Origin: Pseudonocardia sp. SCN 73-27
Lineage (GTDB): Bacteria; Actinomycetota; Actinomycetes; Mycobacteriales; Pseudonocardiaceae
DNA length: 64,000 bases
Direction: 5' to 3'
Assembly: GCA_001725415.1 (NCBI GenBank)
Contig: MEGH01000001.1
Location: 1 to 64,000, forward strand
Under the pieces are notes generated by a model. That model made no database searches. It saw nothing but the letters and a program-made list of their open reading frames with translations, and was not told the DNA's origin. A program made the position numbers and the translations under genes. Below are positions 11,880 through 24,071 of this stretch, one piece after another. Within the stretch, counting starts at the first letter, position 1, and every line of letters starts with the position of its first letter.

Positions 11880-13727
11880 TCAGCCGGACGCGGGAACCTC
11901 GGCCACCGACGACGGGACGACGGGCGGCGCCTCGGACACGGGCGGCGGGTTCGTGACCGGCGGCGGGTTGGTGACCGGCGGCGGGTTGGTGACCGGCGGC
12001 GGGTTCGTGACCGGCGGCGGGTTCGTGACCGGCGGCGGGTCCGTCGCAGGCGGCGGGTCCGACGGCGTGCCCTCGGTGACCGGCGGCGGAGTGCTCGTGT
12101 CGGTGACCACCGGCGGCGCGGTGGTGCCCGCCGGAGCGGCCGGGACGACCGGCGCGGCGGGGGCACCCGGGGCCGCGGGGGCCTTCGCACCCCCGACGGG
12201 GGCCTTGTTCTGCGCAGCGTTGTTGCTACCGACAGGCTGCTCGACGACAGGGTTGGCGGCCGGCGACACGGCGCCCGGCTCGGCGGGGGCCGAGGCCGTC
12301 GACAGGGGGCCGTTGACGGTCGAGCCCGCGGAGGCGGGACGGGCCGTCGGCCAGGTCAGAACGGCGGCGGCGATGGCCGCGATGCCCAGGGCCGCACCGG
12401 CTCCGATCAGCAGGCCCACGGGGCCGCGGCGCTCACGGGGCTCGTCGAGCTCGTCGCGGGTCCAGTCGGGCAGCGGCTGCACCGGGGGACGCGGCGGCGC
12501 GACGTGCGCGACCGGCCGGACGTCGACGGGCGCCACGTCGGACCAGGAGACCGCGGCCGCACCTGCCGCCGGGACGAGCGCCCCCGCGGAGACGACGGGG
12601 ATCGGGGCCGTGATCTCGACGGGCGCGATCTCGACCGCGGGCCACGACATCGACGGCCGCGGCGCCACCGCGAGGACCGCACCCTTGGCGATGGCGTTCT
12701 TGGGGTCGGCGTCGACGGCGACGGGCCGCTCGAGCTGCTCGGACACCAGCTGCGCGACCAGCGGGATGCGCGACGACCCACCGACCAGCAGCACCGCGTC
12801 GAGCATCTCGGGGGTGAGCCCCGCAGAGCCGACGGCCCGGCGCAGCGCGGCGACCGTCTCCTCGACGTGCGGGCCGATGAGCTGCTCGAACTCGCTGCGG
12901 TGCAGCCGCACCGACCCCTGGGTTCCGGGCAGCAGGACGGGGACGGAGGCCTCGGTGTCGGCGGAGAGCGTCTCCTTGGCCTCGGTGCACTCGCGGCGGA
13001 TGCGGGCGACGGCGGCGAGGACGTCGGGGTCGGTGTCGTCGAGCTCGGCGAACGCGTCGGGCATGGCCTCGACGACGTGGTCGAACACGACCTGGTCGAA
13101 GTCGATGCCGCCGAGGCGCTCGATGCCCTCGGGCCGGCCGAGCAGGCCGAACCCGGAGCCGCCCTTGCGGACGACGGCGGAGTCGAAGGTGCCGCCCCCG
13201 AGGTCGTAGACGGCGATGGTGGAGCCGGCGCCGACCCGCTCCGCGGACGCGTAGTGCATCGCGGCGGCCTCGGGTTCGGCGAGGAACGTGACGGTCAGGC
13301 CGTGCGCGGCGAGGGCCCCGGTCAGCAGGTCCTTCTTGTGCTGGCCCCAGGCGGCGGGGTGGCTGACGGCGATGCTGTCGGCGGCGCCGCCCTCGCGGGC
13401 GGCGACCTGCTGCACGATCCAGGCGACCAGCTGCGCGGCGAGCTCCTCGGCCGGCCACGGCGCCCCGGCCACGACCAGCGGGGTGGGGTCGCCGATGCGG
13501 CGCTTGAACTCGCGGACGACGCGATCCGGGTCGGTCAGGGCGCGGCGCTCCGCGGCCTCACCGACCACGACCGAGCCGTCGACCCCCAGGTAGAGCACCG
13601 AAGGGACGCTCGCCGACCGGGACCCGAGGGTCACCATCTCGGGCTCGGCCCATCGGTCTCCCGACGGGCGGCACACGGCCGCGGCCGAGTACGTCGTGCC
13701 CAGGTCGATACCGAGCAGGTACCCCAT
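11880..13727 (-). CDS. Membrane-anchored Hsp70-like ATPase with proline-rich tail
   Basis: 615 residues. The N-terminal actin/Hsp70 ATPase domain has phosphate-1 GIDLGTTYS (6-14), phosphate-2 VYDLGGGTFD (173-182) and the adenosine motif LLVGGSSRIP (313-322), ending near residue 355. The beta-sandwich substrate-binding domain of DnaK is absent. Instead there is a linker, a single membrane helix (~437-458) and an outside tail rich in Pro/Ala with NPPPVT repeats (562-597). The start MGYLLGIDLG is fixed by the fold. It diverges from iniB1 across 370 bases. Hsp70-like proteins of this shape accompany iniBAC-type clusters in actinomycetes (recollection, not checked). A role in sensing or assembling envelope complexes is an inference. 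Confidence 0.88.
   Translation of the reverse strand: MGYLLGIDLGTTYSAAAVCRPSGDRWAEPEMVTLGSRSASVPSVLYLGVDGSVVVGEAAERRALTDPDRVVREFKRRIGDPTPLVVAGAPWPAEELAAQLVAWIVQQVAAREGGAADSIAVSHPAAWGQHKKDLLTGALAAHGLTVTFLAEPEAAAMHYASAERVGAGSTIAVYDLGGGTFDSAVVRKGGSGFGLLGRPEGIERLGGIDFDQVVFDHVVEAMPDAFAELDDTDPDVLAAVARIRRECTEAKETLSADTEASVPVLLPGTQGSVRLHRSEFEQLIGPHVEETVAALRRAVGSAGLTPEMLDAVLLVGGSSRIPLVAQLVSEQLERPVAVDADPKNAIAKGAVLAVAPRPSMSWPAVEIAPVEITAPIPVVSAGALVPAAGAAAVSWSDVAPVDVRPVAHVAPPRPPVQPLPDWTRDELDEPRERRGPVGLLIGAGAALGIAAIAAAVLTWPTARPASAGSTVNGPLSTASAPAEPGAVSPAANPVVEQPVGSNNAAQNKAPVGGAKAPAAPGAPAAPVVPAAPAGTTAPPVVTDTSTPPPVTEGTPSDPPPATDPPPVTNPPPVTNPPPVTNPPPVTNPPPVTNPPPVSEAPPVVPSSVAEVPASG
11941..12058. repeat. 18-bp tandem repeat encoding NPPPVT units
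   Basis: About six and a half copies of an 18-bp unit (ggcggcgggttSgtgacc) lie inside the 3' end of the Hsp70-like gene. They encode the repeated hexapeptide NPPPVT on the minus strand. The copies differ by single silent or conservative bases, so the repeat number may vary between strains. Confidence 0.85.
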
Positions 13728-14097
13728 CGTCTTTCCCTCCCCCGATGTCCGCGAGCTGCCCCGGTGCGTGCGCGGACCCCCTTGCACTGGTGCCATCGGA
13801 GTATCGCCGGACTTCGTTAGCGACCGAAGGGGTGCTAACACCCCAATGCACGAACGGGTGGCACCACAGGGGGCCGGAACCCGCTCCTGCCTGGGACGTC
13901 CCGCCCCGTCCCCCGAAGCCCCTAACGCCCGATCCCGGGGATCCCCGTACCGACGCTTTACCGAACCATGGGAGTTCCCCGATGGCCGGCGCCCGGTCCG
14001 TCCCTAACTTCTGCATCAACGCCAGGGCCGCTCAGCCCGGCCCGCACGACACACCACAAGCGACCGGGCACCGAGCCCACCGAGGGAGACGATCACG
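13728..14097. promoter_or_regulatory. Divergent promoter region of the Hsp70-like and iniB genes
   Basis: 370 bases without a gene. Visible elements are a hairpin ggggtg-ctaa-cacccc (13829-13844) overlapping an inverted pair gttagc/gctaac (13816-13821, 13834-13839), a 12-bp palindrome cggggatccccg (13936-13947), a related gggagttcccc (13970-13980), and further CTAAC copies near 13921 and 14003. The iniB1 ribosome-binding site is gaggga at about 14081-14087. IniR or another stress regulator is the natural candidate to bind here; the binding sites are not known. Confidence 0.6.
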
Positions 14098-15012
14098 ATG
14101 GCCGAGAGCATCTCGCTGCTGGACTTCCTGCTCCGCCTCATCAACGACGAAGACCTCCGCGAGGACTTCAACGACGACCCCGAGGAGGTCCTGGAGGCCT
14201 ACAACCTGACCGACCTCAGCGCGCAGGACGTCTACGACGCGCTGATCCTCGCCCAGGACAGCCACCAGGCCAGCTTCGACCGCAACTACGACACCGGCCA
14301 CAACTACGTCCCGCCGGTGCCGGCGCACGCGGGTCACGGTGGGGGCCACGACGGCGGCCACAGCCACAAGGAAGCCGTCGAGTACATCAACAAGTACATC
14401 ACCAACAACTACGTCGACGACCGCGACACCATCGTCGACAACTCGGTGAACCAGAACATCGACAACCGCGGCGGCATCTTCGACCAGGACATCGACGTCG
14501 ACTCCGTCGTGGCCTCGGGCGACGGCGCGGTGGCGGCCGGCGACGACATCGAGAACAGCACCGTCACCACGGGCAACGGCAACGTGGTCGGCGACGGCAA
14601 CGACGTCGTCAAGGGCGACGGCAACACCACCGCCTTCGGCGACGGCGACGCGGTCTCCACCGGCGATGTCACCACCGGCAACGGCGGCGCGATCTCCTTC
14701 GGCGGCAACGCCTCGGGCAATGACGCCGACACCAACGTGCGCAACTTCGGCGACGGCGACACCAACGTCGCGACCGCCAGCAACGGCAGCGCCGTCGGCC
14801 AGGCCAACGTCCACGTCGACGACGACTCGACCACCACGACGACGAACAACACGAACTCGGGCAACGAGACCAACGTCGACATCGACGACTCGTTCAACAC
14901 CGAGAACGACATCGACTTCGCGTCGAACAACGACATCGCGTCCGACAACGAGGTGCTGTCGAACAACCAGGGCGGCACCGGCGCGGGCGCCGACGGCGTC
15001 GACGCCTTCTGA
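14098..15012 (+). CDS. iniB: IniB-type Asn/Asp/Gly repeat protein, first copy
   Basis: 304 residues. The first ~60 residues form the IniB N-terminal domain (SLLDFLLRLINDEDLREDF, DLSAQDVYDALILAQDS). A His/Gly-rich linker (HAGHGGGHDGGHSH, ~79-92) follows. The rest is a long low-complexity region of short repeats such as NGNVVGDGN, TTAFGDG and TTTTTNNTN, likely a beta-solenoid-like or disordered chain, ending GADGVDAF. No classical signal peptide is seen. In mycobacteria iniB heads the iniBAC operon, which is induced by cell-wall inhibitors (established). The ATG at 14098 has a good upstream GAGGGAG. It is followed after 45 bases by a near-duplicate. Confidence 0.85.
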   Translation: MAESISLLDFLLRLINDEDLREDFNDDPEEVLEAYNLTDLSAQDVYDALILAQDSHQASFDRNYDTGHNYVPPVPAHAGHGGGHDGGHSHKEAVEYINKYITNNYVDDRDTIVDNSVNQNIDNRGGIFDQDIDVDSVVASGDGAVAAGDDIENSTVTTGNGNVVGDGNDVVKGDGNTTAFGDGDAVSTGDVTTGNGGAISFGGNASGNDADTNVRNFGDGDTNVATASNGSAVGQANVHVDDDSTTTTTNNTNSGNETNVDIDDSFNTENDIDFASNNDIASDNEVLSNNQGGTGAGADGVDAF

Positions 15013-15860
15013 TCTTCCCCTTCACCCACTAACGCCTACTTACCCGAGGAGCCCGAAATGGCCGACCAGACCCTGATCCAGTTCCTGATGAGCCTGTTCG
15101 AGGACGAGGAGCAGCTCGCCGAGTTCCAGGCCAACCCGGAGGCGTTCCTGGCCTCCTGCGGCATCACCGACCTCGACGCCGGCGACGTGCACGAGGCCCT
15201 GGTCCTGCTGCGCGACTCGCACGACGCCAGCTTCGACCGCGACTACAACACCGGTCACAACGGCGGCCACCACCACCCGGTGCCCCCGCCCCCGCACCCG
15301 GGCCCCGGCGAGAACGCGCACGACGTCGCGGTCAAGTACCTGAACACCTACGTCACCAACAACTACATCGACGACCGCGACACCATCGTCGACAACTCGA
15401 TCAACCAGAACATCGACAACCGCGGCGGCATCTTCAACCAGGACATCGACGTCGACTCCGTCGTCGCGTCCGGTGACGGCTCCGTGGCTGCCGGCGGCGA
15501 CATCGAGGACAGCACCATCACCACCGGCAACGACAACGTCGTCGGCAACGGCAACGACGTCGTCAAGGGCGACGGCAACACCACCGCCTTCGGCAACGGC
15601 GACGCGGTCTCCACCGGCGACCTCACCACCGGCAACGGCGGCGCGATCTCCTTCGGCGGCAACGCCTCGGGCAACGACGCCGACACCAACGTCGCAAACT
15701 TCGGCGACGGCGACACCAACGTGGCCACCGCCAGCAACGGCAGCACCGTCGGCCAGGCGAACACCCACGTCGACGACGACTCGACCACCACGACGACGAA
15801 CAACACTAACTCGAACAACGAGACCAACGTGGACGTCGACGACTCGTTCAACACCGACAA
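14380..15860 (+). repeat. Direct duplication of the iniB repeat body, period 954 bp
   Basis: From about 14390 to 14890 the first iniB copy repeats, with few changes, at about 15344-15844. The offset is 954 at both points tested (14461/15415 and 14701/15655). The flanking N-terminal coding parts are clearly more diverged, so the identity is confined to the repeat body. This suggests recent conversion or recombination between the copies. Confidence 0.85.
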
Positions 15861-15966
15861 CGACGTCGACATCCTGTCGAACAACGACGTGCTCTCGCAC
15901 AACGACGTCGCCTCCGGCAACACGGGCGGCTCGGGCACCGGCGCCGACGGCGTCGACGTCCTCTGA
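15058..15966 (+). CDS. iniB: IniB-type Asn/Asp/Gly repeat protein, second copy
   Basis: 302 residues, paralogous to the gene before it. The N-terminal domain is divergent in sequence but the same in design (QFLMSLFEDEEQLAEFQ, LDAGDVHEALVLLRDS). The linker is His/Pro-rich (GGHHHPVPPPPHPG). From about residue 100 onward the repeat body is nearly identical to copy one at a constant DNA offset of 954 bp. The C-terminal tail is again GADGVD. The start has a strong GAGGAG eight bases upstream. Retention of two copies suggests subunits with different N-terminal partners or simple dosage. It should be co-transcribed with the first copy, and a hairpin lies before iniA. Confidence 0.85.
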   Translation: MADQTLIQFLMSLFEDEEQLAEFQANPEAFLASCGITDLDAGDVHEALVLLRDSHDASFDRDYNTGHNGGHHHPVPPPPHPGPGENAHDVAVKYLNTYVTNNYIDDRDTIVDNSINQNIDNRGGIFNQDIDVDSVVASGDGSVAAGGDIEDSTITTGNDNVVGNGNDVVKGDGNTTAFGNGDAVSTGDLTTGNGGAISFGGNASGNDADTNVANFGDGDTNVATASNGSTVGQANTHVDDDSTTTTTNNTNSNNETNVDVDDSFNTDNDVDILSNNDVLSHNDVASGNTGGSGTGADGVDVL

Positions 15967-16001
15967 CGCTGCATCCAGGGGTAGCCTGAGCGGTACCCGA
16001 C

Positions 16002-16043
16002 GATCGGCCCCGTCTTCCCGGACCCGGGAGGGCGGGGCCGATC
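16002..16043 (+). terminator. Large hairpin between iniB and iniA, terminator or attenuator
   Basis: gatcggccccg (16002-16012) pairs perfectly with cggggccgatc (16033-16043), and the interior itself holds a cccgg/ccggg stem. It sits in the 133-base gap after the second iniB. It could end most iniB transcripts while letting some read into iniA, or stabilise the iniB mRNA 3' end. Confidence 0.65.
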
Positions 16044-16099
16044 TCGTCGTGTACCAAGGACACAGCACGCAGCAGCGATACGGGGGGGTTCGGCTCGTA

Positions 16100-17926
16100 G
16101 TGGCGGTTCCGGCAGCTGTCGACCTGGTCGACCTGGCGCTCAAGGCGACCACGGCCTACCAGCGGCCCGACCTGGGGCTCCGGCTGCAACACACCCGCAA
16201 ACGCCTCGCCGACCCCGCGGTCCGCGTCCTCATCGTCGGCGAGTTCAAACAGGGCAAGTCGCAGCTGGTCAACGCACTGGTCAACGCCCCCGTCTGCCCG
16301 GTCGACGACGACATCTCCACCTCGGTGCCCACCGTTGTCAAGCACGGCGAGACGCCCGCCGTGTCGATCGTCCGCGACCACGGCCTCGACGACGACCGGC
16401 CCCCCGAGCGCACGGAGGTGCCCATCGGGCGCCTCGCCGAGTTCGTCTCCGAAGCCGGCAATCCCGACAACCGGGCCAAACTGAGCTACGCCGAGGTCTC
16501 GCTCCCGCGCAAGCTCCTCGCCGGCGGGCTCGTCCTCGTCGACACCCCCGGCGTCGGTGGGCTCGGTTCCGCCCACGGCGCGGCCACGATGTCGGTGCTG
16601 CCCAGCGCCGACGCCGTCCTCCTCGTCTCCGACGCCGCCCAGGAGTACACCGCCCCCGAGATGGAGTTCCTCGGCGCGGCGATGAAGCTGTGCCCCAACG
16701 TGGCCTGCGTCGTCACCAAGACCGACCTCTACCCGCACTGGCGCCGAATCGTCGAGCTCGACGCCGGGCACCTCGAACGCGCCGGGGTGAAGGCCGACAT
16801 CCTGCCAATCTCCTCGACGCTGCGCCTGCACGCCGCGCAGACCCAGGACGCCGCCCTCATGGAGGAGTCCGGGTTCAAGGAGCTCATCGGGTTCCTGCTC
16901 AACCGCGTCGTCGCCCGCGCCGACGACCTCGACCGGCGCTCCACCGCGCAGGACGTCCTCGACGTCTGCGAACAGCTGGCCACGACGATGAAGTCCGAGC
17001 TCACCGCGCAGGAGGACCCCGAGCGGGCCGAAGCGCTGGTCGCCGACCTCACCGCCGCCAAGACCCGCGCCGACGCCCTCCGGCAGCGCTCCGCCCGGTG
17101 GCAGACCACCCTCAACGACGGCGTCGCCGACCTCATCGCCGACATCGACTACGACCTGCGCGACCGGTTGCGCGCCATCGCCCGCGACGCCGAACAGCTC
17201 CTCGAGGACGCCGACCCCGCCGACATATGGGACCAGTTCGCCGAGTGGATGCACCAGCAGGTCTCGACGGCCGCGTCCGCCAACTTCGTGTGGACCGCCG
17301 AACGCGCCCGCTACCTCGCCGGACAGGTCGCCGAACACTTCGCCGAGGGCGCCGAGATCGCGCTGCCGACGCTGCGGTTCGAAGACACCGTCGGCACCAT
17401 GGGCGGCCGCGTCGGCGCCCTCGAACAGCCCGTCGACGAGAAGTTCGGCATCGGCCAGAAACTCTTCACCGGTATGCGCGGCGGCTACGGCGGCCTGCTC
17501 ATGATCGGCCTCGCCACCAGCATCGCCGGCCTCACCCTGCTCAACCCCATCTCCATCGGCGCCGGTCTCCTCTTCGGTGGCAAGACCGTGCGCGACGAGC
17601 GGAAACGCCTCAAGCAACGGCGGCAGGCCGAGTCGAAGAACGCGGTGCGACGCCACATCGACGAGGTGACCTTCCAGGTCTCCAAGGACTCCCGGGACAT
17701 GCTGCGCCGTATCCAGCGCGACCTGCGCGACCACTTCACCGTCCTCGCCGAGGAGGTCTCCACCTCCCTCGCGACGTCCGTCGCCGCCGCCCAGTCGGCC
17801 GTCAAGACCGACACCAACGAGCGCGAGTCCCGCATCCGCGACCTGCGCGCCGAGCTCACCCGCATCGAGGCCCTCGGCGAACGCGCCAAGCAGCTCGCCG
17901 CCCAGGCCGGGCAGGTCACCGCGTGA
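16100..17926 (+). CDS. iniA: IniA-type bacterial dynamin-like GTPase
   Basis: 608 residues from a GTG preceded by a run of G. The GTPase domain has G1 GEFKQGKS (47-54), a switch-1 threonine region DDDISTSVPT, G3 DTPGVGG (148-154) and G4 TKTD (206-209). A long helical neck/trunk follows, then a hydrophobic paddle at about 457-496 (LLMIGLATSIAGLTLLNP, GAGLLFGG) and more helices to the C-terminus. This matches the mycobacterial IniA fold, a membrane-fissioning dynamin-like protein (established for the family). It is the third gene of the iniBAC order and probably acts with IniC at the cytoplasmic membrane during cell-wall stress. An upstream GTG at 16049 is possible, but 16100 fits the family start. 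Confidence 0.9.
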   Translation: MAVPAAVDLVDLALKATTAYQRPDLGLRLQHTRKRLADPAVRVLIVGEFKQGKSQLVNALVNAPVCPVDDDISTSVPTVVKHGETPAVSIVRDHGLDDDRPPERTEVPIGRLAEFVSEAGNPDNRAKLSYAEVSLPRKLLAGGLVLVDTPGVGGLGSAHGAATMSVLPSADAVLLVSDAAQEYTAPEMEFLGAAMKLCPNVACVVTKTDLYPHWRRIVELDAGHLERAGVKADILPISSTLRLHAAQTQDAALMEESGFKELIGFLLNRVVARADDLDRRSTAQDVLDVCEQLATTMKSELTAQEDPERAEALVADLTAAKTRADALRQRSARWQTTLNDGVADLIADIDYDLRDRLRAIARDAEQLLEDADPADIWDQFAEWMHQQVSTAASANFVWTAERARYLAGQVAEHFAEGAEIALPTLRFEDTVGTMGGRVGALEQPVDEKFGIGQKLFTGMRGGYGGLLMIGLATSIAGLTLLNPISIGAGLLFGGKTVRDERKRLKQRRQAESKNAVRRHIDEVTFQVSKDSRDMLRRIQRDLRDHFTVLAEEVSTSLATSVAAAQSAVKTDTNERESRIRDLRAELTRIEALGERAKQLAAQAGQVTA

Positions 17927-18076
17927 GCGAGCGTCAGCGAGCGAACCGACGACACAGCGCGTGCGCGCAGCGCCGCCCGAGCTTCAGCGAGGGCGTGCCT
18001 CCGGGCGAGCGTCAGCGAGCCGGGCATCGACACAGCGCGTGCGCGCAGCGCCGCCCGAGCTTCAGCGAGGGCGTGC
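17927..18076 (+). repeat. Two 72-bp direct repeats between iniA and iniC
   Basis: Copies at 17927-17998 and 18005-18076 begin gcgagcgtcagcgagc and end gcgagggcgtgc. They differ mainly in a few bases after position 16 of the unit. Each contains GC-rich self-complementary stretches (gcgcgtgcgcgc, cagcgc). The second copy ends one base before the iniC ATG, and its terminal GAGGG serves as the Shine-Dalgarno sequence. Similar gcgagcgtcagcgag elements are frequent between genes in some actinomycetes (general recollection). Confidence 0.9.
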
Positions 18077-18077
18077 G

Positions 18078-19577
18078 ATGAGCGCGCCCACTGTCGGTCA
18101 GGCTCCTCCGCTCGGGTCGACCGTCCGGGTCCTGTTGCGGCACACCATGGAGGCCTACTCCGACAGCCCCCAGGCCCTCGGCTGGCTCCGTCACCACCTC
18201 GAACGTTTCGACGAGCCGCTGCGCGTCGCCATCGCCGGCAAGGTCAAGGCCGGGAAGTCCACGCTGCTCAACGCGCTCGTCGGCGAGGAGATCGCACCCA
18301 CCGACGCGGGGGAGTGCACGCGCGTCGTCACCTGGTACCAGGACGGGCACGTCCCCAAGGTCCTCATGTACCCCAAGGCCGCCCAACCCCGGCCGCTGAC
18401 GATCCACCGCAACCGCGGCGCCCTCGCCTTCGACCTCCAGGGCACCCCCACCGAACAGGTCGACCGGCTCGTCGTCGACTGGCCCTCGCAGAACCTGCGC
18501 AGCCAGACCCTCATCGACACCCCCGGCATCGCATCCCTGTCCGGCGACACCTCGATGCGCGCCGGGGCCTTCCTCACCCCCGACGACGCCCCCACCCCCG
18601 CCGACGCCGTCATCTACCTGATGCGCCACCTGCACGCCACCGACGTGCGGTTCCTCGAGTCGTTCTACGACCAGGGCGTCGCCAAGGCCACCCCCGTCAA
18701 CACCATCGCCGTCCTGTCGCGCGCTGACGAGATCGGCGTCGGCCGCCTCGACGCCCTCACCTCCGCACGCCGCATCGCCCGCCGCTACCGCTCCGACGAG
18801 AAGATCCGCGGCCTCTGCCAGACCGTCGTCGCCGTCGCCGGGCTTCTCGCCCAGACCGGCCGCACCATGCGCCAGGACGAGTTCGCCGCCCTCGTCGCCC
18901 TCGCCGAACTGCCCCGCGCCGACATGGACGGCCTGCTGCTGTCGGTCGACCGCTTCGTCCGCGGCGACGGCGTCGAGCTCACCCACCCCGACACCGACGC
19001 CCGCGCCCGCCTCATCGAACGCTTCGGCCTGTTCGGCGTCCGGCTCGGTGTCACCCTCGTCCGGCAGGGCATCAACGACCCCACCCGCGTCGCCGAGGAA
19101 CTCGTCCGCCGCAGCGGCCTCGAAGACCTCCGCACAGTACTGTCGACGCAGTTCACCGAACGCCGCGACCTGCTGAAATCACGGTCGGCCCTGCTCGCCG
19201 TCGAGATGGTGCTGCAGCGCGAACCCCGCCCTGCCGCCACCGCGCTCGCCGCGGAGGTCGAAAAGATTCTTGCGGGGGCGCACGAGTTCGTCGAGCTGCG
19301 CATGCTCTCCGCCCTGCGCGCCGGCGCCGTCAAGCTCCCCACCGACGCCATCGAGGAAGCCGAACGCCTCCTCGGCGGCGAAGGCGGCTCCGCGGCCGCG
19401 AGGCTCGGCCTCGACCCCGGCATCCACCCCGAGGACCTCCGCCGCGCCGCCCTCGAGGCCGCCACCCGCTGGAAGCGCCGCGCCGAGAGCCCCCTCTCCA
19501 GCCGCAACACCGCCGACGCCGCCCGCATCGTCGTTCGCAGCTGCGAAGGAATGCTCGCCAGCCTCCGCCGCTACTGA
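18078..19577 (+). CDS. iniC: IniC-type bacterial dynamin-like GTPase
   Basis: 499 residues. G1 is GKVKAGKS (54-61), the switch-1 region is DAGECTRVVT, G3 is DTPGIAS (147-153), and a LSRADE segment stands for G4. The C-terminal part is helical with no strong membrane paddle, as in IniC of mycobacteria (493 residues). It likely pairs with IniA in remodelling the membrane. The ATG at 18078 is preferred because the family starts near here and the upstream frame is only the repeat sequence. The Shine-Dalgarno sequence lies in the second 72-bp repeat. Codon use is like its neighbours. Confidence 0.9.
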   Translation: MSAPTVGQAPPLGSTVRVLLRHTMEAYSDSPQALGWLRHHLERFDEPLRVAIAGKVKAGKSTLLNALVGEEIAPTDAGECTRVVTWYQDGHVPKVLMYPKAAQPRPLTIHRNRGALAFDLQGTPTEQVDRLVVDWPSQNLRSQTLIDTPGIASLSGDTSMRAGAFLTPDDAPTPADAVIYLMRHLHATDVRFLESFYDQGVAKATPVNTIAVLSRADEIGVGRLDALTSARRIARRYRSDEKIRGLCQTVVAVAGLLAQTGRTMRQDEFAALVALAELPRADMDGLLLSVDRFVRGDGVELTHPDTDARARLIERFGLFGVRLGVTLVRQGINDPTRVAEELVRRSGLEDLRTVLSTQFTERRDLLKSRSALLAVEMVLQREPRPAATALAAEVEKILAGAHEFVELRMLSALRAGAVKLPTDAIEEAERLLGGEGGSAAARLGLDPGIHPEDLRRAALEAATRWKRRAESPLSSRNTADAARIVVRSCEGMLASLRRY

Positions 19578-19626
19578 GTGAGCCTCAGCGGGGACGCGCT
19601 CAGGTTCGCCGAAGCCAGAACGGCTC

Positions 19627-19736
19627 AGGATGGCTCGAGGATCATCCCCGCTGCAGAGGCGTTGAAGCCGGCCGTGAGGCCGCCGCTCTGTGCCGCTGCG
19701 GCGCAATAGATCAACGTGCCGCCGCGGCCCGCCACG
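19627..19736 (-). CDS. Possible small ORF after the DUF3558 lipoprotein
   Basis: A 36-residue frame from a GTG (cac at 19734-19736) reads GRGGTLIYCAAAAQSGG and ends MILEPS before TGA. It starts seven bases after the lipoprotein stop on the same strand. Composition looks protein-like, but I recognise no family, and it may be the decayed 5' or 3' piece of a larger gene. Confidence 0.3.
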
Positions 19737-19743
19737 ACAGTCC

Positions 19744-20283
19744 TCAGAGTGAGGCTATGACCCGCTCCGCAAATGCCGTCGCCTTCTCGCAGACCTGGGC
19801 GTGCGTCGATGAACGCTCCTCAGATGCAGGCTCGTACTGGAAGTTCAGTAAGTGCATACCCTCGTCCTCGACAAACACAAGACACTCCCGGTCTTTGAAC
19901 GTCCGCGACGAATACGTCTGCGCCGCACGCTTTCCGGCGATGGTCGAGGCGACCGGTTCCTCATATCCGCGCAACACTGAGTCCAGGTCCATACTGTCCG
20001 GCAGTACTGCCATGTAATACACCCGACGATCCGGCGTCGACCACGTGCATTCCCGACTGCCCACGACCACAGGGTCGATGGTCTCGGTGCCGATGCCAAT
20101 CGAGAACTGCGCCCTGGTTGCATCATCGACTATTCCGCAGGGCCCTGCGGCGCGCATTTTCTCAACTGCAGGTGACGCAGCCGGCGTCGCCGGAGCGGGG
20201 CTCGCCGGTGTGGAGCAGGAGGCGATGGTGATGATCACAGCGAACGCCGCAGCCGCGTAAATGCTGAGCTTCACAGCTTTCAT
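19744..20283 (-). CDS. DUF3558-type lipoprotein
   Basis: 179 residues. A signal sequence with lipobox (AVIITIASC, Cys at 23) is followed by a Pro/Ala-rich linker. A globular domain carries the DUF3558 pattern: CGIVDDATRAQFSIG, SRECTWS and the closing CEKATAFAERVIASL. It would be exported, lipidated at Cys23 and held on the outer face of the membrane. The ATG at 20283 overlaps the upstream stop as ATGA, so it is translationally coupled to the 20280 gene. In actinomycetes DUF3558 lipoproteins are often encoded next to ESX-type small substrates; their role is unknown. Confidence 0.85.
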   Translation of the reverse strand: MKAVKLSIYAAAAFAVIITIASCSTPASPAPATPAASPAVEKMRAAGPCGIVDDATRAQFSIGIGTETIDPVVVGSRECTWSTPDRRVYYMAVLPDSMDLDSVLRGYEEPVASTIAGKRAAQTYSSRTFKDRECLVFVEDEGMHLLNFQYEPASEERSSTHAQVCEKATAFAERVIASL

Positions 20284-20705
20284 CGACCGGCCATCGAGGC
20301 GGCGATCTGATCTTCTGTGTATCCGTAGGCGGTTGCCGAATCCTTCAACGCATCGGCAACGAGTTTCAGGTCGGCCACATAGAGAAAGAAGTGGTCGATC
20401 AGCGCCTGCGCTCGCTCAGTGAATGCAAGCTCGGCATCTTCGGACACCGGATCCCCGCCACACCGGCCGGCTTTCAGGTTCTTTGCCCCTCGCAAGCTCT
20501 CGGACAGCCGTGTCACCTCACCGAGGATGACGGCCCGAACCTGGAGGACGTTGTCGCGGTTGACTCGCATCCCTGCGACCGGCGTCGTCAGGCCGGTGCG
20601 CAACCCCTCGATCTCCACGAGCAAGGAGGATAGATCGCCATCGTCAAGGCGGTAGCCGCTTTGGTCGAAGTGCGCCCGACTGTGCGTGCACTCGCGAACC
20701 GACAT
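20280..20705 (-). CDS. Hypothetical protein paired with DUF3558 lipoprotein
   Basis: 141 residues, mostly helical (LSSLLVEIEGLRTGL, ALIDHFFLYVADLKLVADALKDSATAYGYTEDQ), with no signal peptide or membrane helix. The C-terminal segment, with a Y.YTEDQ-like end after a long helix, resembles small helical proteins encoded beside DUF3558 genes and in type VII secretion contexts. That link is an inference. Start MSVREC at 20705 is chosen; a longer reading to 20993 has an unlikely composition. Its stop overlaps the lipoprotein ATG. Confidence 0.65.
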   Translation of the reverse strand: MSVRECTHSRAHFDQSGYRLDDGDLSSLLVEIEGLRTGLTTPVAGMRVNRDNVLQVRAVILGEVTRLSESLRGAKNLKAGRCGGDPVSEDAELAFTERAQALIDHFFLYVADLKLVADALKDSATAYGYTEDQIAASMAGR

Positions 20706-21347
20706 CGTCTCGTGAGTTCTGTGGTCACCGCGTGAGTTCGGTGGCAACTGCGGGGTTTCTGCGGTCGACCCTTGCTCTGCACACCGAGCTCCGAACAGAA
20801 GATCCACGCCTTGACGAGAGAAATCGCGCGGTGCTCCCGAGTGAGCACGCACCTCCTCGCGACCGCACCCGTTGCCCAACTCCAGCACCCGTGGAGAGAG
20901 TGGGGCGCGGGCGGAAAGGGGTGCGCCGGCTGCGGGCGGACCCGGCTGCGCGGTCGCCGGATCGTGGGCAGACACTCGATCCCCCGCTGACACATCTCAA
21001 CGAGGTGCTGCATCCGTTTCAGCGCCACGCACCCACTGCAACGGGCGCAGCGCAGCGAGAAGGGTGCAGCCAGCCAGCTGGAGGCCAGAACACGCGGCGG
21101 CCCCCGGGTCCAGCGCTCGGCTTCCGCGGTCGTCACGCACGTTTCACCGTCGTCGCGCCACCTGCAGCTCGACCGACGGCCCGAGAACCCACGCGCCGAC
21201 CGGCCGAGCCACGCGCCGACCCGCAGGGGCCGAGGACGGCGGCCGACCACCACCGCACGCAACGTCAGGGTCCTCGACCAGCCGCCGGCGCAGCAGTGAG
21301 GTTGCGCGCGGACGCCTTCGGCGGCCGAGCACGGGGCACCGGAAGGG
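20706..21347. other. Gene-poor region between the DUF3558 pair and iniR
   Basis: About 640 bases with no frame I can support. An imperfect direct repeat (cgtgagttctgtggtcac at 20710 and cgtgagttcggtggcaac at 20730) lies just upstream of the 20705 start. The rest is GC-rich with scattered open frames of poor composition. No tRNA or IS remnant was recognised. Confidence 0.45.
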
Positions 21348-24071
21348 TCAGGCGTCGGGGCCCATGATCTGGCGGAGGTGGGCGAAGAGCTCGCCGCGGG
21401 AGTTGGAGCCGAGGCGTTGGCGCATGCGGGCGACGTGGTGTTCCACGGTCTTCGCGCTGATGAAGAGGCGTTCGCCGACCTGCTTGTAGGTCAGACCCTC
21501 GAGCACCAGCTTCGCCACCTCGCGCTCCCGGTCGCTGAGGGGGCCTTCGCCCAGGTCCTCGGGCTCGGGGGCGTCCGCCTGGGGCACCGGGCCCGAGGTG
21601 GGAGCGGCGGCGACGGGCCCACCGGCCTGCATCGCCCGAGCCGCGCCCAACAACGCGGTCATGGCCTTGCGGTCGCGGGTGCGGATGGCGGCCTGGCCTG
21701 CGAGTTTGCCACCCTCCCACGACAGTCCCACCGCGTGGAGGCCGCGGGCGGCGGCTTCGACGGCGTCGGCGTCGACCTCGGCGTCCATGAGGTTGACCCA
21801 GTGGGGGGCGGCGTCGGCCATGGCGGTGGCGTAGCGGCTGACGGGGGCGGCGTCGCGGAGGGCGTCGGCGTGGGCGGTGGCGGCGGCGCGGTCGTCGGCG
21901 ACGATCGCGGCGTGCAGCTGTGACCAGTGCAGGGGTGCGGACCAGAGGGCGGGGCGGCCGAGCCGGTCGAGGAGGGTGGCGGCTTCGTCGAGGTGGGGGC
22001 GGACCCAGCTGGTCTCGCGGAGCCGGTTGGCGGCGATGGCGAGCTCGCCGAGGGGTTGGAGGACGAAGAGGTCGACGGGGTGGCGGACGATCGCTTCGCG
22101 GGCGCGGCCCCAGGCGGGCATGAGGGCGGCGAGGTCGCCTGCGCGGCGGGCGATGGAGACCTCGAGGGCGGCGGCGAGGAGCTCGTCGCGGGGTTCGAGG
22201 CGGGCGTCGATGGGCGAGGCGGTGCCGAGTAGGGACCGGGCGGTGGGGATGGCGCCGCGGAAGACGGCGATCCAGGCGAGCAGCAGCTGGTGACGGGTGA
22301 CGGCGGCGGGGCCCCCGAGCTCGACGTCGACGGCGCGGTCGAGGACGGACTGGGCGACGTCGAGCTCGCCGCAGTGGATGGCGACGAGGGCGGCGAGGGC
22401 GGCGGGGGTGTCGGGGAGGAGAGCTGCCCGGTTCGAGGCCTCGAGCAGGGAGGCGGAGCGGGCGAGCTGGGACAGCGCGCGGGTGGGTGACCCGGCGACG
22501 GAGTCGAGGACGCCGGCGGCCATGAGCTGTTCGGCGGAGGCCAGCAGGGTGGGTGGGCGGCCGACGGTCGCGGTGGGTGAGGGGCCGCCGAACAGCGGCG
22601 GCGGCGTGAGGATCGAGGGGGGCGGCGGGATCGCAGCCGGCGCGGGCTGCGAGGGGGCGGGAGGCGACAGGAGCGCGCGGGCTTCCTCGAGAGCTCCGGT
22701 CCCGATCAGGGCCGGGACGGCGAGCGGCCCGGTCTCGGCCGACCCGCCGACGGCGCTGATCCACCGGTAGAGCTCGGCGCTGCGGGCGAGGAGTCCGCGG
22801 TGGGCGAGGACGGCCGCTGCGGCGGTGCCTGCGGTGACGGCGTCCTCGACGTCGACGGCGTCGACGTGGGAGAGGACCTGGTCGGCCTGGGAGAGTGCGA
22901 GGTCGAGGTCGCCTGCGCGGACGGCGGCTTCGGCGCGGCGGGCGGCGAGGCGCAGGCCGGGGGCGCCGGCGGCGACGGCGGCTTCGTAGAGGGGTCCGGC
23001 GACGGGGTCGCCGGTGCGGGCGGCTTCGTCGGCCCCTGCGACGAAGACCTCGGCGGCGCGGGCGCCGGTGGCGCCGGTGTCGAGGAGGCCGCGGGCGGCG
23101 GTGAGGACGGAGCCGCCGCGGTCGAGCTCGATCTCGGCGAGGGTGCGGCGGACCTCGAGGCGCCGGGCGCCGGGGACGCGTTGGCGGACGGCGTGGGCGA
23201 CGAGCGGGGGGAGGGCGCCGTCGGCGGTGAGGTGTCCGGCGGAGCGGGCTTCCTCGACGAGCTCGTCCACCTCGTCGATGCCTCCGCCTGCGGCGTCGGC
23301 GAGGCCGAGGAGGGGGACGAGGACCTCGGCGTCGCGGGGCGCGCCGAGGGCGAGTGCGACGAGGAGCTCGCGGACGCGTCGTTCCAAGCCGTAGACGGCG
23401 TATCCGAGCTGGTGGACGAGGTTCTGCGGGGGCCGGGCGGGGATGCCGCCGGGTTGGGCGAGACGGGCGCGGTCGGCGGGGCCGATCTGGTCGAGGATGG
23501 CGGTGAGGTGGCGGTCGACGAGGTCGGGCAGGCCGGCGGTCTGCGCGAGGACGTGGTCGACGAGCGGGACGGGCGGGCGTTCGCGCAGGAGGCGGGCGGC
23601 GCGGGCAGCGACGCCGGGCCGGTCGAGGGCGCCGAGGACGAGGAGTGTGCCGCCGCCGGCGATGGCGCCACCGAGGGCGGCGAGCTCGGGTCCGGCGGGC
23701 CAGGGCCGGTGGGCGACGACGATGCGGTGGCTGCGGGCGGCGGCGATGTCGCGGAGGTGGCGCAGATCGTCGGCGGGCAGGAGGTGGACGTCGTCGAGGA
23801 CGAGGACGGCGTCGTCGGGGACGTCCGCGGACAGGGCGCGCAGGACGGGGGCGCCGGCGGCGCGGTAGGCGTCGGCGAGGAGGTCGAGCAGGACGGTCTT
23901 GCCGTGTCCGGCGGGGGCGACGACGTCGATGCGGCGGGGTGCGGCGGGGGTGGCGACGATCTCGCGGTAGAGCCTGCGGGCGGCGGTGGCGCCGGCGAGG
24001 GCGCTGTCCGGTTCGGGCCGGGACGGCTCGGAGCCTGCCCCCGGGCCCATCGACCGGGCCGTCACGCTCAC
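21348..24071 (-). CDS. iniR: IniR-type STAND ATPase/LuxR transcriptional regulator
   Basis: 907 residues from a GTG. An N-terminal AAA/STAND module has Walker A APAGHGKT (52-59) and Walker B AVLVLDDVHLL (~87-97). A long alpha-helical repeat region of TPR/LAL type follows. A C-terminal LuxR helix-turn-helix (LSDREREVAKLVLEGL, YKQVGERLFISAKTVEHHV) spans ~840-900. This is the architecture of the isoniazid-response regulator IniR and of LAL regulators. In Mycobacterium tuberculosis iniR (Rv0339c) is encoded close to iniBAC (established). Here it lies about 1.8 kb past iniC on the opposite strand. It probably activates the iniB promoter; direct targets are an inference. Confidence 0.85.
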   Translation of the reverse strand: MSVTARSMGPGAGSEPSRPEPDSALAGATAARRLYREIVATPAAPRRIDVVAPAGHGKTVLLDLLADAYRAAGAPVLRALSADVPDDAVLVLDDVHLLPADDLRHLRDIAAARSHRIVVAHRPWPAGPELAALGGAIAGGGTLLVLGALDRPGVAARAARLLRERPPVPLVDHVLAQTAGLPDLVDRHLTAILDQIGPADRARLAQPGGIPARPPQNLVHQLGYAVYGLERRVRELLVALALGAPRDAEVLVPLLGLADAAGGGIDEVDELVEEARSAGHLTADGALPPLVAHAVRQRVPGARRLEVRRTLAEIELDRGGSVLTAARGLLDTGATGARAAEVFVAGADEAARTGDPVAGPLYEAAVAAGAPGLRLAARRAEAAVRAGDLDLALSQADQVLSHVDAVDVEDAVTAGTAAAAVLAHRGLLARSAELYRWISAVGGSAETGPLAVPALIGTGALEEARALLSPPAPSQPAPAAIPPPPSILTPPPLFGGPSPTATVGRPPTLLASAEQLMAAGVLDSVAGSPTRALSQLARSASLLEASNRAALLPDTPAALAALVAIHCGELDVAQSVLDRAVDVELGGPAAVTRHQLLLAWIAVFRGAIPTARSLLGTASPIDARLEPRDELLAAALEVSIARRAGDLAALMPAWGRAREAIVRHPVDLFVLQPLGELAIAANRLRETSWVRPHLDEAATLLDRLGRPALWSAPLHWSQLHAAIVADDRAAATAHADALRDAAPVSRYATAMADAAPHWVNLMDAEVDADAVEAAARGLHAVGLSWEGGKLAGQAAIRTRDRKAMTALLGAARAMQAGGPVAAAPTSGPVPQADAPEPEDLGEGPLSDREREVAKLVLEGLTYKQVGERLFISAKTVEHHVARMRQRLGSNSRGELFAHLRQIMGPDA

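What the first reader, a model, noticed from the sequence alone, without database searches (positions are those of the whole stretch)
14098..24071. Whole Ini module as a possible undescribed envelope-remodelling machine
IniR, Hsp70-like protein, two IniB proteins, IniA and IniC together give a sensor, an ATP switch, a surface polymer-like protein and two membrane-fission GTPases. The mycobacterial iniBAC is known as an antibiotic-induced operon, but the Hsp70-like partner, the IniB pair and the module as a whole have no established joint mechanism that I know of.
Basis: partly seen in the sequence, partly recalled or inferred. Interest (0 to 1): 0.75.

Follow-up and report, generated by a model that had tools for sequence, protein, structure and literature searches.

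The report
Envelope-stress module with decaying Hsp70
A block of genes that actinobacteria use to answer cell-envelope damage turns out to carry, almost always, an Hsp70-like protein that has lost its substrate-binding half and often its ATPase residues, which suggests it acts as a membrane-bound sensor part rather than as a chaperone.

Summary
The genes are real, but the span is off: the Hsp70-like gene (11880-13727, minus) lies outside it and two unrelated genes (19744-20993) lie inside. All 115 IniB genomes among 298 also carry IniA.

The parts are not one co-regulated block. A MalT-like box with a fixed-spacing -10 precedes IniB, nearly always pointing at it: 22 of 28 IniB genes in loci kept out of training, against 5 of 433 other genes. 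IniBAC looks like the induced effector arm, Hsp70-like plus IniR like a sensor arm (inference).

The Hsp70-like protein has no substrate-binding domain. Its catalytic residues are intact in the window but changed in 61 of 107 loci, at least 8 times on the IniA tree. The IniB pair shows signs of concerted evolution of its repeat domain.

No structure prediction came back. IniA fission, IniA/IniC vesicle release and IniR control were already published for mycobacteria; a dnaK-like gene beside iniR was remarked once.

The parts
11880..13727 (-). Hsp70-like protein, 615 aa: Hsp70 ATPase domain (about 1-352) without substrate-binding domain, predicted membrane helix 439-457 preceded by RERRG, Pro-rich tail with PPPVTN repeats. 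Catalytic residues D8, T11, K75, E151, D175, T180, D182 present.
   Evidence: Pfam HSP70 6.5e-47, best stretch ends at profile position 370 of 599; hydropathy; residues
13728..14097 (.). Divergent intergenic region between Hsp70-like gene and iniB1
   Evidence: 370 bp between the two called genes
13916..13927 (+). Predicted IniR box 1 (AAGCCCCTAACG)
   Evidence: 17.2 bits; motif from 78 divergent intergenics, this one included, 15.84 bits against 8.71-8.94 in 3 dinucleotide shuffles
13974..13985 (+). Predicted IniR box 2 (GTTCCCCGATGG) in the -35 position
   Evidence: 7.9 bits, under the 10-11 bit thresholds used elsewhere; CCCCGATG 28-29 nt before a TANNNT in related intergenics
14005..14010 (+). 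Predicted -10 hexamer TAACTT of the iniB operon
   Evidence: Read; offset 28 nt from CCCCGATG at 13977
14098..15012 (+). IniB1, 304 aa: LigA-like N-terminal domain plus acidic N/D/G/T repeat domain
   Evidence: NF038175 53.6 bits, cut-off 40; composition and net charge -50
15058..15966 (+). IniB2, 302 aa: same plan
   Evidence: NF038175 62.8 bits; N-terminal domain 44% and repeat core 87% identical to IniB1
16100..17926 (+). IniA, bacterial dynamin-like GTPase with membrane loop
   Evidence: Dynamin_N; profile A1 finds solved IniA 6j72 at 4.7e-241; conserved loop GSYGGVLM in the consensus
17927..18076 (+). 72-bp direct duplication between iniA and iniC
18079..19577 (+). IniC, second dynamin-like GTPase
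   Evidence: Dynamin_N 3.4e-12; ATG at 18079 read; my gene caller chose 18147
21348..24071 (-). IniR-like STAND ATPase with LuxR-type DNA-binding domain
   Evidence: NF038181 2.8e-121 but 406 bits against cut-off 750; GerE domain at 844-896

Best explanation
It is an envelope-stress module with two arms. Effector arm: IniB, IniA and IniC are switched on together by the MalT-like regulator IniR from an activator-dependent promoter upstream of iniB. IniA, probably with IniC, cuts the inner membrane (known in mycobacteria). IniB proteins dock through their LigA-like N-terminal domain and co-assemble through their acidic repeat domains on the membrane that is being remodelled. Sensor arm: the Hsp70-like protein is not a chaperone. 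It uses an Hsp70 ATPase fold, often degenerate, as a docking platform. Here and in many relatives it is tied to the membrane with a Pro-rich tail reaching into the wall. I propose that it holds IniR inactive at the membrane, as the transporter ATPase MalK holds MalT in E. coli, and releases it when the envelope is damaged or the inducer (trehalose in mycobacteria) rises. Shown here by sequence: five-gene conservation, the promoter signature and its specificity, lack of the substrate-binding domain, repeated change of catalytic residues, the split identity pattern of the IniB pair. Inferred: that IniR binds the box, that the Hsp70-like protein binds IniR, membrane topology, and what IniB does.
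For: Hsp70-like in 75 of 75 fully flanked loci; all five gene types in 71 of 75. Of 13 IniA+IniC loci (of 144) without it, 11 run off the contig on that side; only L102 and L124 have room for it. Hsp70-like and IniR are adjacent, co-oriented genes in 72 called pairs: median gap 11 bp, 48 of 72 at most 60 bp. They stay together when the locus is rearranged in Micrococcales. Box upstream of IniB in 22 of 28 held-out co-directional loci against 5 of 433 other called genes; upstream of Hsp70-like 0 of 27 and IniR 0 of 27. CCCCGATG occurs in 47 of 78 intergenics (shuffle mean 1.03, max 6), with TANNNT at 28-29 nt 42 times and at one other offset once within 15-60 nt. Catalytic Glu/Asp/Thr changed in 61 of 107 loci, at least 8 changes on the IniA tree. 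IniB repeat cores: 87% (window) and 94% (P. dioxanivorans) within genome against 77 and 80% between the two, while N-terminal domains are 44-45% within and 85-88% between. Precedent: MalK anchors MalT at the membrane (PMC10427625, passages).
Against: In the window and its Pseudonocardia relatives iniR is not next to the Hsp70-like gene but downstream of iniC on the minus strand, so the operon argument does not hold locally. In 87 of 100 loci in which both genes were called, Hsp70-like and iniB are divergent neighbours and the boxes lie between them; 84 of these 87 have a site of 10 bits within 500 bp upstream of the Hsp70-like gene, so control of both genes from there is not excluded. Several relatives lack a membrane helix by hydropathy (for example L082, L088, L061), so membrane tethering is not universal. 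PMC5760070 lists the dnaK-like gene as a difference of M. smegmatis; IniR works in M. marinum, so it can act without this neighbour. L102 has IniR and no Hsp70-like gene in the stretch. IniB: against the nearest relative (L117) repeat cores are more alike between genomes (97 and 99%) than within (87%), and the repeat core is better conserved than the N-terminal domain in general.
Confidence: 0.45

Rival explanations
1. The Hsp70-like protein serves the effector arm: it assembles or takes apart IniA/IniC or IniB polymers at the membrane, as Hsc70 uncoats clathrin next to dynamin in eukaryotes (analogy recalled).
For: Divergent from iniB with a shared upstream region in 87 of the 100 loci in which both genes were called; the window copy keeps the ATPase residues; in Pseudonocardia it sits beside iniB while iniR is elsewhere. 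Another locus in the same genome (L037) has an Hsp70-like protein near an IniC-like GTPase fused to a histidine kinase.
Against: No substrate-binding domain and ATPase residues changed at least 8 times; not under the IniB box in co-directional loci.
Confidence: 0.27
2. The Hsp70-like protein is mainly a structural tie between membrane and cell wall that positions IniA/IniC; the Hsp70 fold is only an anchor for IniB or the GTPases.
For: A hydropathy-predicted helix after residue 330 in 43 of 52 called Hsp70-like proteins of the named set (the 52 include partial genes), often followed by Pro/Thr/Ser-rich tails; ATPase residues dispensable.
Against: Some proteins have no helix (for example L082, L088, L061) but keep a short RPPV-x-I-T-P-L motif at the C-terminus (strict form in 25 of 114 tails; shuffled mean 0.01, max 1).
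Confidence: 0.13
3. The module is a conflict or anti-phage system, like the published GTPase-centred systems with Hsp70 proteins lacking the peptide-binding domain.
For: PMC7159879 (passages) describes GTPases with Hsp70, some without peptide-binding domain, and STAND NTPases; IniA and IniC hit LeoA/LeoBC models in PADLOC.
Against: Those hits are explained by shared dynamin homology; most genomes with IniA have a single match; mycobacterial homologues answer cell-wall drugs (PMC5760070).
Confidence: 0.06
4. The Hsp70-like gene is a chance neighbour.
For: None found.
Against: 75 of 75 fully flanked loci across Pseudonocardiaceae, unnamed families of the order and Micrococcales, also after rearrangement.
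Confidence: 0.01

Closest known systems
Mycobacterial iniBAC operon with IniR (PMC5760070: passages and two sections read)
   Same: IniR, an iniB-type gene pair (iniB*/iniB), iniA, iniC; STAND regulator of MalT type; N-terminal part of IniB conserved.
   Different: The Hsp70-like partner as a conserved member, a different layout, an N/D/G/T-rich IniB; a host genome without an apparent Pks13 (window genome only). The paper mentions a dnaK-like gene only for M. smegmatis. A second mycobacterial regulator of iniBAC, HpoR (PMC13413693, abstract and passages), was not looked for here.
IniA dynamin-like protein, PDB 6j72 (PMC6715688: abstract and passages)
   Same: Profile match over almost the full length at 4.7e-241, conserved GTPase motifs and membrane loop.
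   Different: No biochemistry on the Pseudonocardia protein.
IniA/IniC in extracellular vesicle release (PMC11077946, review, passages; PMC11832169, passages)
   Same: Two GTPases needed together for vesicles; induced through IniR.
   Different: Shown in mycobacteria; the primary paper is not held here.
MalT and its negative partners MalK, MalY, Aes (PMC10427625: passages)
   Same: STAND activator with a C-terminal DNA-binding domain; partner proteins that are enzymes or an ATPase sequester it; several binding sites at a promoter.
   Different: Proposed partner is an Hsp70-like protein; no interaction shown here.
DnaK / Hsp70 chaperones
   Same: ATPase domain (125 distinct solved sequences at E <= 1e-5).
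   Different: No substrate-binding domain; catalytic residues often changed; often a membrane helix and wall tail.
GTPase-centred conflict systems with Hsp70 (PMC7159879: passages)
   Same: GTPases with Hsp70 proteins, some lacking the peptide-binding domain.
   Different: Other GTPase families; the terms dynamin and IniB have 0 occurrences in that text.

Membership tests
iniBAC/IniR module | iniB, iniA, iniC in one direction in this order | tested here: met
iniBAC/IniR module | IniR passes the curated equivalog cut-off (NF038181, 750 bits) | tested here: not met
   406 bits, 2.8e-121; named IniR-like only
iniBAC/IniR module | Induced by cell-wall inhibitors or trehalose through IniR | not testable with these tools
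   Only a predicted operator was found
IniB family | IniB N-terminal domain over cut-off (NF038175, 40 bits) | tested here: met
   53.6 and 62.8 bits
Rv0340 (iniB*) family | NF038176 over 100 bits | tested here: not met
   18.3 and 18.9 bits
Bacterial dynamin-like proteins, IniA | Dynamin_N domain and full-length similarity to solved IniA | tested here: met
Bacterial dynamin-like proteins, IniC | Dynamin_N domain over cut-off | tested here: met
   47.2 bits, cut-off 27
Hsp70 chaperones (DnaK) | Substrate-binding domain | tested here: not met
   Best profile match stops at position 370 of 599; DnaK equivalog cut-off not reached (152.9 against 648)
Hsp70 ATPase domain | Catalytic residues D8, K70, E171, D194, T199 (DnaK numbers recalled) | tested here: met
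   All present in the window protein; Glu/Asp/Thr set intact in only 46 of 107 loci
MalT-type STAND activators | Activator sites at the -35 position with further upstream sites (recalled) | tested here: inconclusive
   Fixed 28-29 nt spacing and upstream boxes; binding not tested
Anti-phage defence systems | PADLOC match beyond generic dynamin homology | tested here: not met
   Only LeoA/LeoBC hits for the GTPases and a CARF3 model on the regulator's DNA-binding domain

The most novel reading that the evidence does not exclude
A signalling system in which an Hsp70 has been turned into a membrane-spanning, wall-reaching pseudo-ATPase that gates a STAND transcription factor, while the regulated arm (IniB co-polymer plus two dynamins) remodels the membrane. 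The module would be older than, and independent of, the mycolic-acid envelope in which iniBAC was found.
Probability: 0.35. Interest if true: 0.82.

Novelty: new variant of a known kind. Interest (0 to 1): 0.62.

Why it matters
In mycobacteria iniBAC has been studied without the Hsp70-like partner; the comparison in PMC5760070 gives a dnaK-like neighbour only for M. smegmatis. Showing that the partner is present in nearly every other module examined, that it decays as an enzyme yet is kept, and that IniB-IniA-IniC carry the predicted operator turns a vague operon into a two-arm model with testable edges. It also gives a candidate IniR binding site, places the module in a genome with no apparent mycolic-acid condensase (window genome), and would add a case of Hsp70 used for signalling rather than folding.

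Tried and rejected
Structure prediction: jobs for IniB (A3) and the Hsp70-like protein (A4) never finished; no fold claim is made, and the beta-solenoid idea for IniB stays untested.

Resemblance of the C-terminal RPPV-x-I-T-P-L motif to the DnaK linker (VLLLDVTPLSLG, visible): seen by eye, not tested, not used as evidence.

First count of catalytic residues by plain patterns (36 to 63 of 114 by motif) was replaced by an alignment-based count.

Regulon search in the window genome with RATCCCCKAWSG gave 3 hits against 1 in the reversed control and does not match the window's own box; no regulon claimed.

A -10 search after the last box at the higher threshold was weak (14 of 74, shuffled mean 4.6, max 10); aligning on CCCCGATG gave the clear spacing. 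That second pattern was chosen after looking at the sequences.

Box orientation: all 55 sites near IniB in 48 fully flanked loci point at IniB, but the listing (60 of 87 divergent loci shown, 10-bit threshold) has two opposite sites, L059 and L069.

Conflict system and chance neighbour were considered and rejected as main reading. Literature: term searches (listings; one search listed 30 of 92; few papers were opened) showed no paper on the Hsp70-like partner beyond the remark in PMC5760070. The 2000 promoter paper and the 2023 vesicle paper are not held.

Neither was picked by Hsp70, but neither is random.
Full report
WHAT IS THERE. The window most likely comes from a Pseudonocardia: its IniA is 96% identical to that of Pseudonocardia sp. 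N23 and 94% to P. dioxanivorans CB1190 (best segments). From left to right the module is: Hsp70-like (11880-13727, -), iniB1 (14098-15012, +), iniB2 (15058-15966, +), iniA (16100-17926, +), iniC (about 18079-19577, +), then a DUF3558 gene and an unknown ORF on the minus strand, then an IniR-like regulator (21348-24071, -). The finding's span leaves out the Hsp70-like gene and takes in the two unrelated genes.

CONSERVATION. IniB was found in 115 of 298 genomes of the order and IniA (E <= 1e-60) in 122 of the 298; all 115 are among the 122, and 7 genomes have IniA without IniB. In a sample of the phylum the IniB domain is rare: 18 of 396 genomes, 11 over the cut-off. I fetched 78 usable neighbourhoods from 63 of the 115 genomes (two further stretches were placeholders and dropped) and 80 named ones chosen by IniA. 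With the window, 159 loci were examined. 144 hold both IniA and IniC; of these 131 hold an Hsp70-like gene, 135 IniB, 135 IniR. Among the 75 with at least 8 kb on both sides of the middle of IniA the counts are 75, 72 and 74, with all five in 71. Of the 13 loci without the Hsp70-like gene, 11 run off the contig on the relevant side; L102 and L124 are the two with room. Neither set was chosen by Hsp70. The window genome has Hsp70 matches at 8 separate places in 6.95 Mb, so chance adjacency is out of the question. The sets overlap at least once (L038 and L131), and relatives are not independent.

LAYOUT. The commonest layouts among the 75 are: Hsp70-IniR-IniB-IniA-IniC all in one direction (21; seen in Micrococcales such as Arthrobacter and Agromyces), IniR and Hsp70 divergent from IniB-IniA-IniC (18), and the window's type with IniR downstream of IniC (11, plus 4 with three iniB genes). 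Where Hsp70-like and IniR are adjacent and co-oriented their median gap is 11 bp (72 pairs, 48 at most 60 bp); IniA-IniC overlap by 4 bp at the median of 135 pairs. In the window's genus the Hsp70-IniR adjacency is lost, which weakens the argument locally.

THE PROMOTER. Gibbs sampling on 78 Hsp70-IniB intergenics gave a 12-mer, roughly [AG]ATCCCC[TG]A[AT][CT]G, with 15.84 bits against 8.71-8.94 in three dinucleotide shuffles. The 28 co-directional loci were not in the training set: a same-strand box lies within 400 bp upstream of IniB in 22 of 28, and upstream of 5 of 433 other called genes. In 27 fully flanked co-directional loci the box is upstream of Hsp70-like in 0, IniR 0, IniA 0, IniC 0, IniB 21. 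With a lower threshold (10 bits) and called genes, 2 of 12 co-directional loci have a site upstream of Hsp70-like, both pointing the other way. In 48 other fully flanked loci all 55 IniB-associated sites point towards IniB; two opposite ones appear in the wider listing (L059, L069, 60 of 87 shown). In divergent loci the same region is also upstream of the Hsp70-like gene (84 of 87 with a site), so joint control there is not excluded. CCCCGATG occurs in 47 of 78 intergenics (shuffled mean 1.03, max 6), and TANNNT follows it at 28 or 29 nt 42 times and once elsewhere within 15-60 nt. In the window: box 1 at 13916-13927 (17.2 bits), a weaker box 2 at 13974-13985 (7.9 bits), TAACTT at 14005-14010. 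This is what an activator that replaces the -35 contact would leave, and fits a MalT-type regulator (inference). That IniR is the protein that binds is inferred from its family and neighbourhood. PMC5760070 does not contain the terms 'binding site' or 'palindrom'.

THE HSP70-LIKE PROTEIN. The best Pfam Hsp70 match ends at model position 370 of 599, i.e. the ATPase domain only. All 35 members scanned, the window's included, match Hsp70. In the window a predicted membrane helix (439-457) follows an arginine-rich stretch, and a Pro-rich tail follows the helix, so by the positive-inside rule the ATPase domain should be in the cytoplasm and the tail in the wall (inference). A helix after residue 330 was found by hydropathy in 43 of 52 called proteins of the named set, partial genes included, but some proteins of the unnamed set have none. 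The catalytic Glu/Asp/Thr set is intact in 46 of 107 loci with a usable IniA and changed in 61; at least 8 changes are needed on the IniA tree, including within Pseudonocardia (3 of 17 named changed). The call rests on one MAFFT alignment anchored on the window protein; I looked at nine changed relatives by eye and the decay is real there. A protein kept in place while its catalytic residues are lost is more likely a binding platform than an engine (inference).

THE INIB PAIR. Both have the IniB N-terminal domain. A profile of 35 Pseudonocardia IniB proteins finds only LigA-domain chains among solved structures (7 of 7 hits, E 0.0018-0.0031), weak but consistent; two of the listed rows name SonA, one of them as a RiPP precursor. 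This suggests a docking domain (inference). The rest is acidic (net charge of the whole proteins -50 and -46) and rich in N, D, G, T. In 12 genomes the first and last IniB differ in the N-terminal domain (34-48% identity) but are alike in the repeat core (64-94%). Between the window and P. dioxanivorans the repeat cores are 77 and 80% identical, less than within each genome (87 and 94%), while N-terminal domains are the reverse (85-88% between, 44-45% within). Within-genome core identity exceeds both window-to-genome values in 9 of 11 genomes compared; the exceptions are L117, the nearest relative (97 and 99% between, 87% within), and L131 (64% within; 52 and 66% between). For the more distant genomes the N-terminal domains are too diverged (34-49%) to show orthology, and the repeat core is better conserved in general, so the case for homogenisation rests mainly on P. 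dioxanivorans and on the DNA, where identity of the two window copies steps from 60-68% to 87-95% near alignment position 300 and falls again near the end. I read this as gene conversion confined to the repeat domain, which would suggest that the two repeat domains must fit each other, as in a mixed assembly (inference). PMC7350357 (passages) reports Rv0341 (IniB) in the cell-wall fraction; how a protein without a visible signal peptide would get there is open, and vesicles made by IniA/IniC are one possible route (inference).

MECHANISM. Known in mycobacteria: IniA has GTP-dependent fission activity (PMC6715688, abstract and passages); IniA and IniC are needed for vesicle release (PMC11077946, passages); IniR activates iniBAC, with trehalose as a signal (PMC5760070, two sections and passages) and perhaps ATP (PMC6104191, passages); HpoR represses it (PMC13413693, abstract and passages). 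New here: the two-arm split and the conserved Hsp70-like partner. Closest precedent: E. coli MalT is held at the membrane by the transporter ATPase MalK and inhibited by the enzymes MalY and Aes (PMC10427625, passages). I propose the same role for the Hsp70-like protein towards IniR. The rival that it serves the dynamins or IniB is not excluded; another locus in the same genome (L037) has an Hsp70-like protein with a propeller-like tail (YVTN-type repeats by eye), two-component regulators and an IniC-like GTPase fused to a histidine kinase within 20 kb, which shows such a protein near a dynamin-like GTPase in another setting.

NOT THE MYCOMEMBRANE. No Pks13 over the cut-off was found in the window genome (best 292 bits against 2100; 1 of 14 control genomes passes). 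Other genomes were not tested; that Pseudonocardiaceae and Micrococcaceae lack mycolic acids is recalled. If so, the module is not tied to mycolic acids, although its drug response was discovered there.

VERDICT.

Noticed in passing
L037 (window genome, contig C7:1-20000), 402-1316, 6811-11706 and 14880-17390: Another locus: a lone third IniB near the contig start, a 1631-aa protein that joins a sensor histidine kinase to an IniC-like GTPase, two-component regulators, and an 836-aa Hsp70-like protein with a membrane helix and a YVTN-type propeller-like tail (domain names other than Hsp70, IniB and IniC by eye).
   Followed up: partly
window 17927-18076: A 72-bp direct duplication (92% alike) between iniA and iniC; its 21-bp end occurs exactly nowhere else in the genome.
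   Followed up: partly
Hsp70-like C-termini in unnamed loci such as L082, L061, L070: A short motif RPP[VI]-x-[VIL]-x-P-[LMF] in 25 of 114 tails (shuffled mean 0.01, max 1), just before the helix or near the C-terminus; by eye it recalls the DnaK interdomain linker.
   Followed up: partly
window genome, contigs C54, C8, C63, C37: Further Hsp70 matches besides two full-length DnaK-like ones, the window gene and the C7 gene; their neighbourhoods were not looked at and could be other Hsp70-based signalling loci.
   Followed up: no
L044, L051, L068: Second copies made of IniR and IniB alone, without IniA, IniC or an Hsp70-like gene in the stretch.
   Followed up: no
L119, L120, L122, L124, L128: Pseudonocardia loci with three tandem iniB genes, one of those in L120 short.
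   Followed up: partly
window genome, contig C11:174076-175654: A divergent pair of Dynamin_N genes apart from the ini locus, perhaps like the DynA/DynB pair of Streptomyces (recalled).
   Followed up: no
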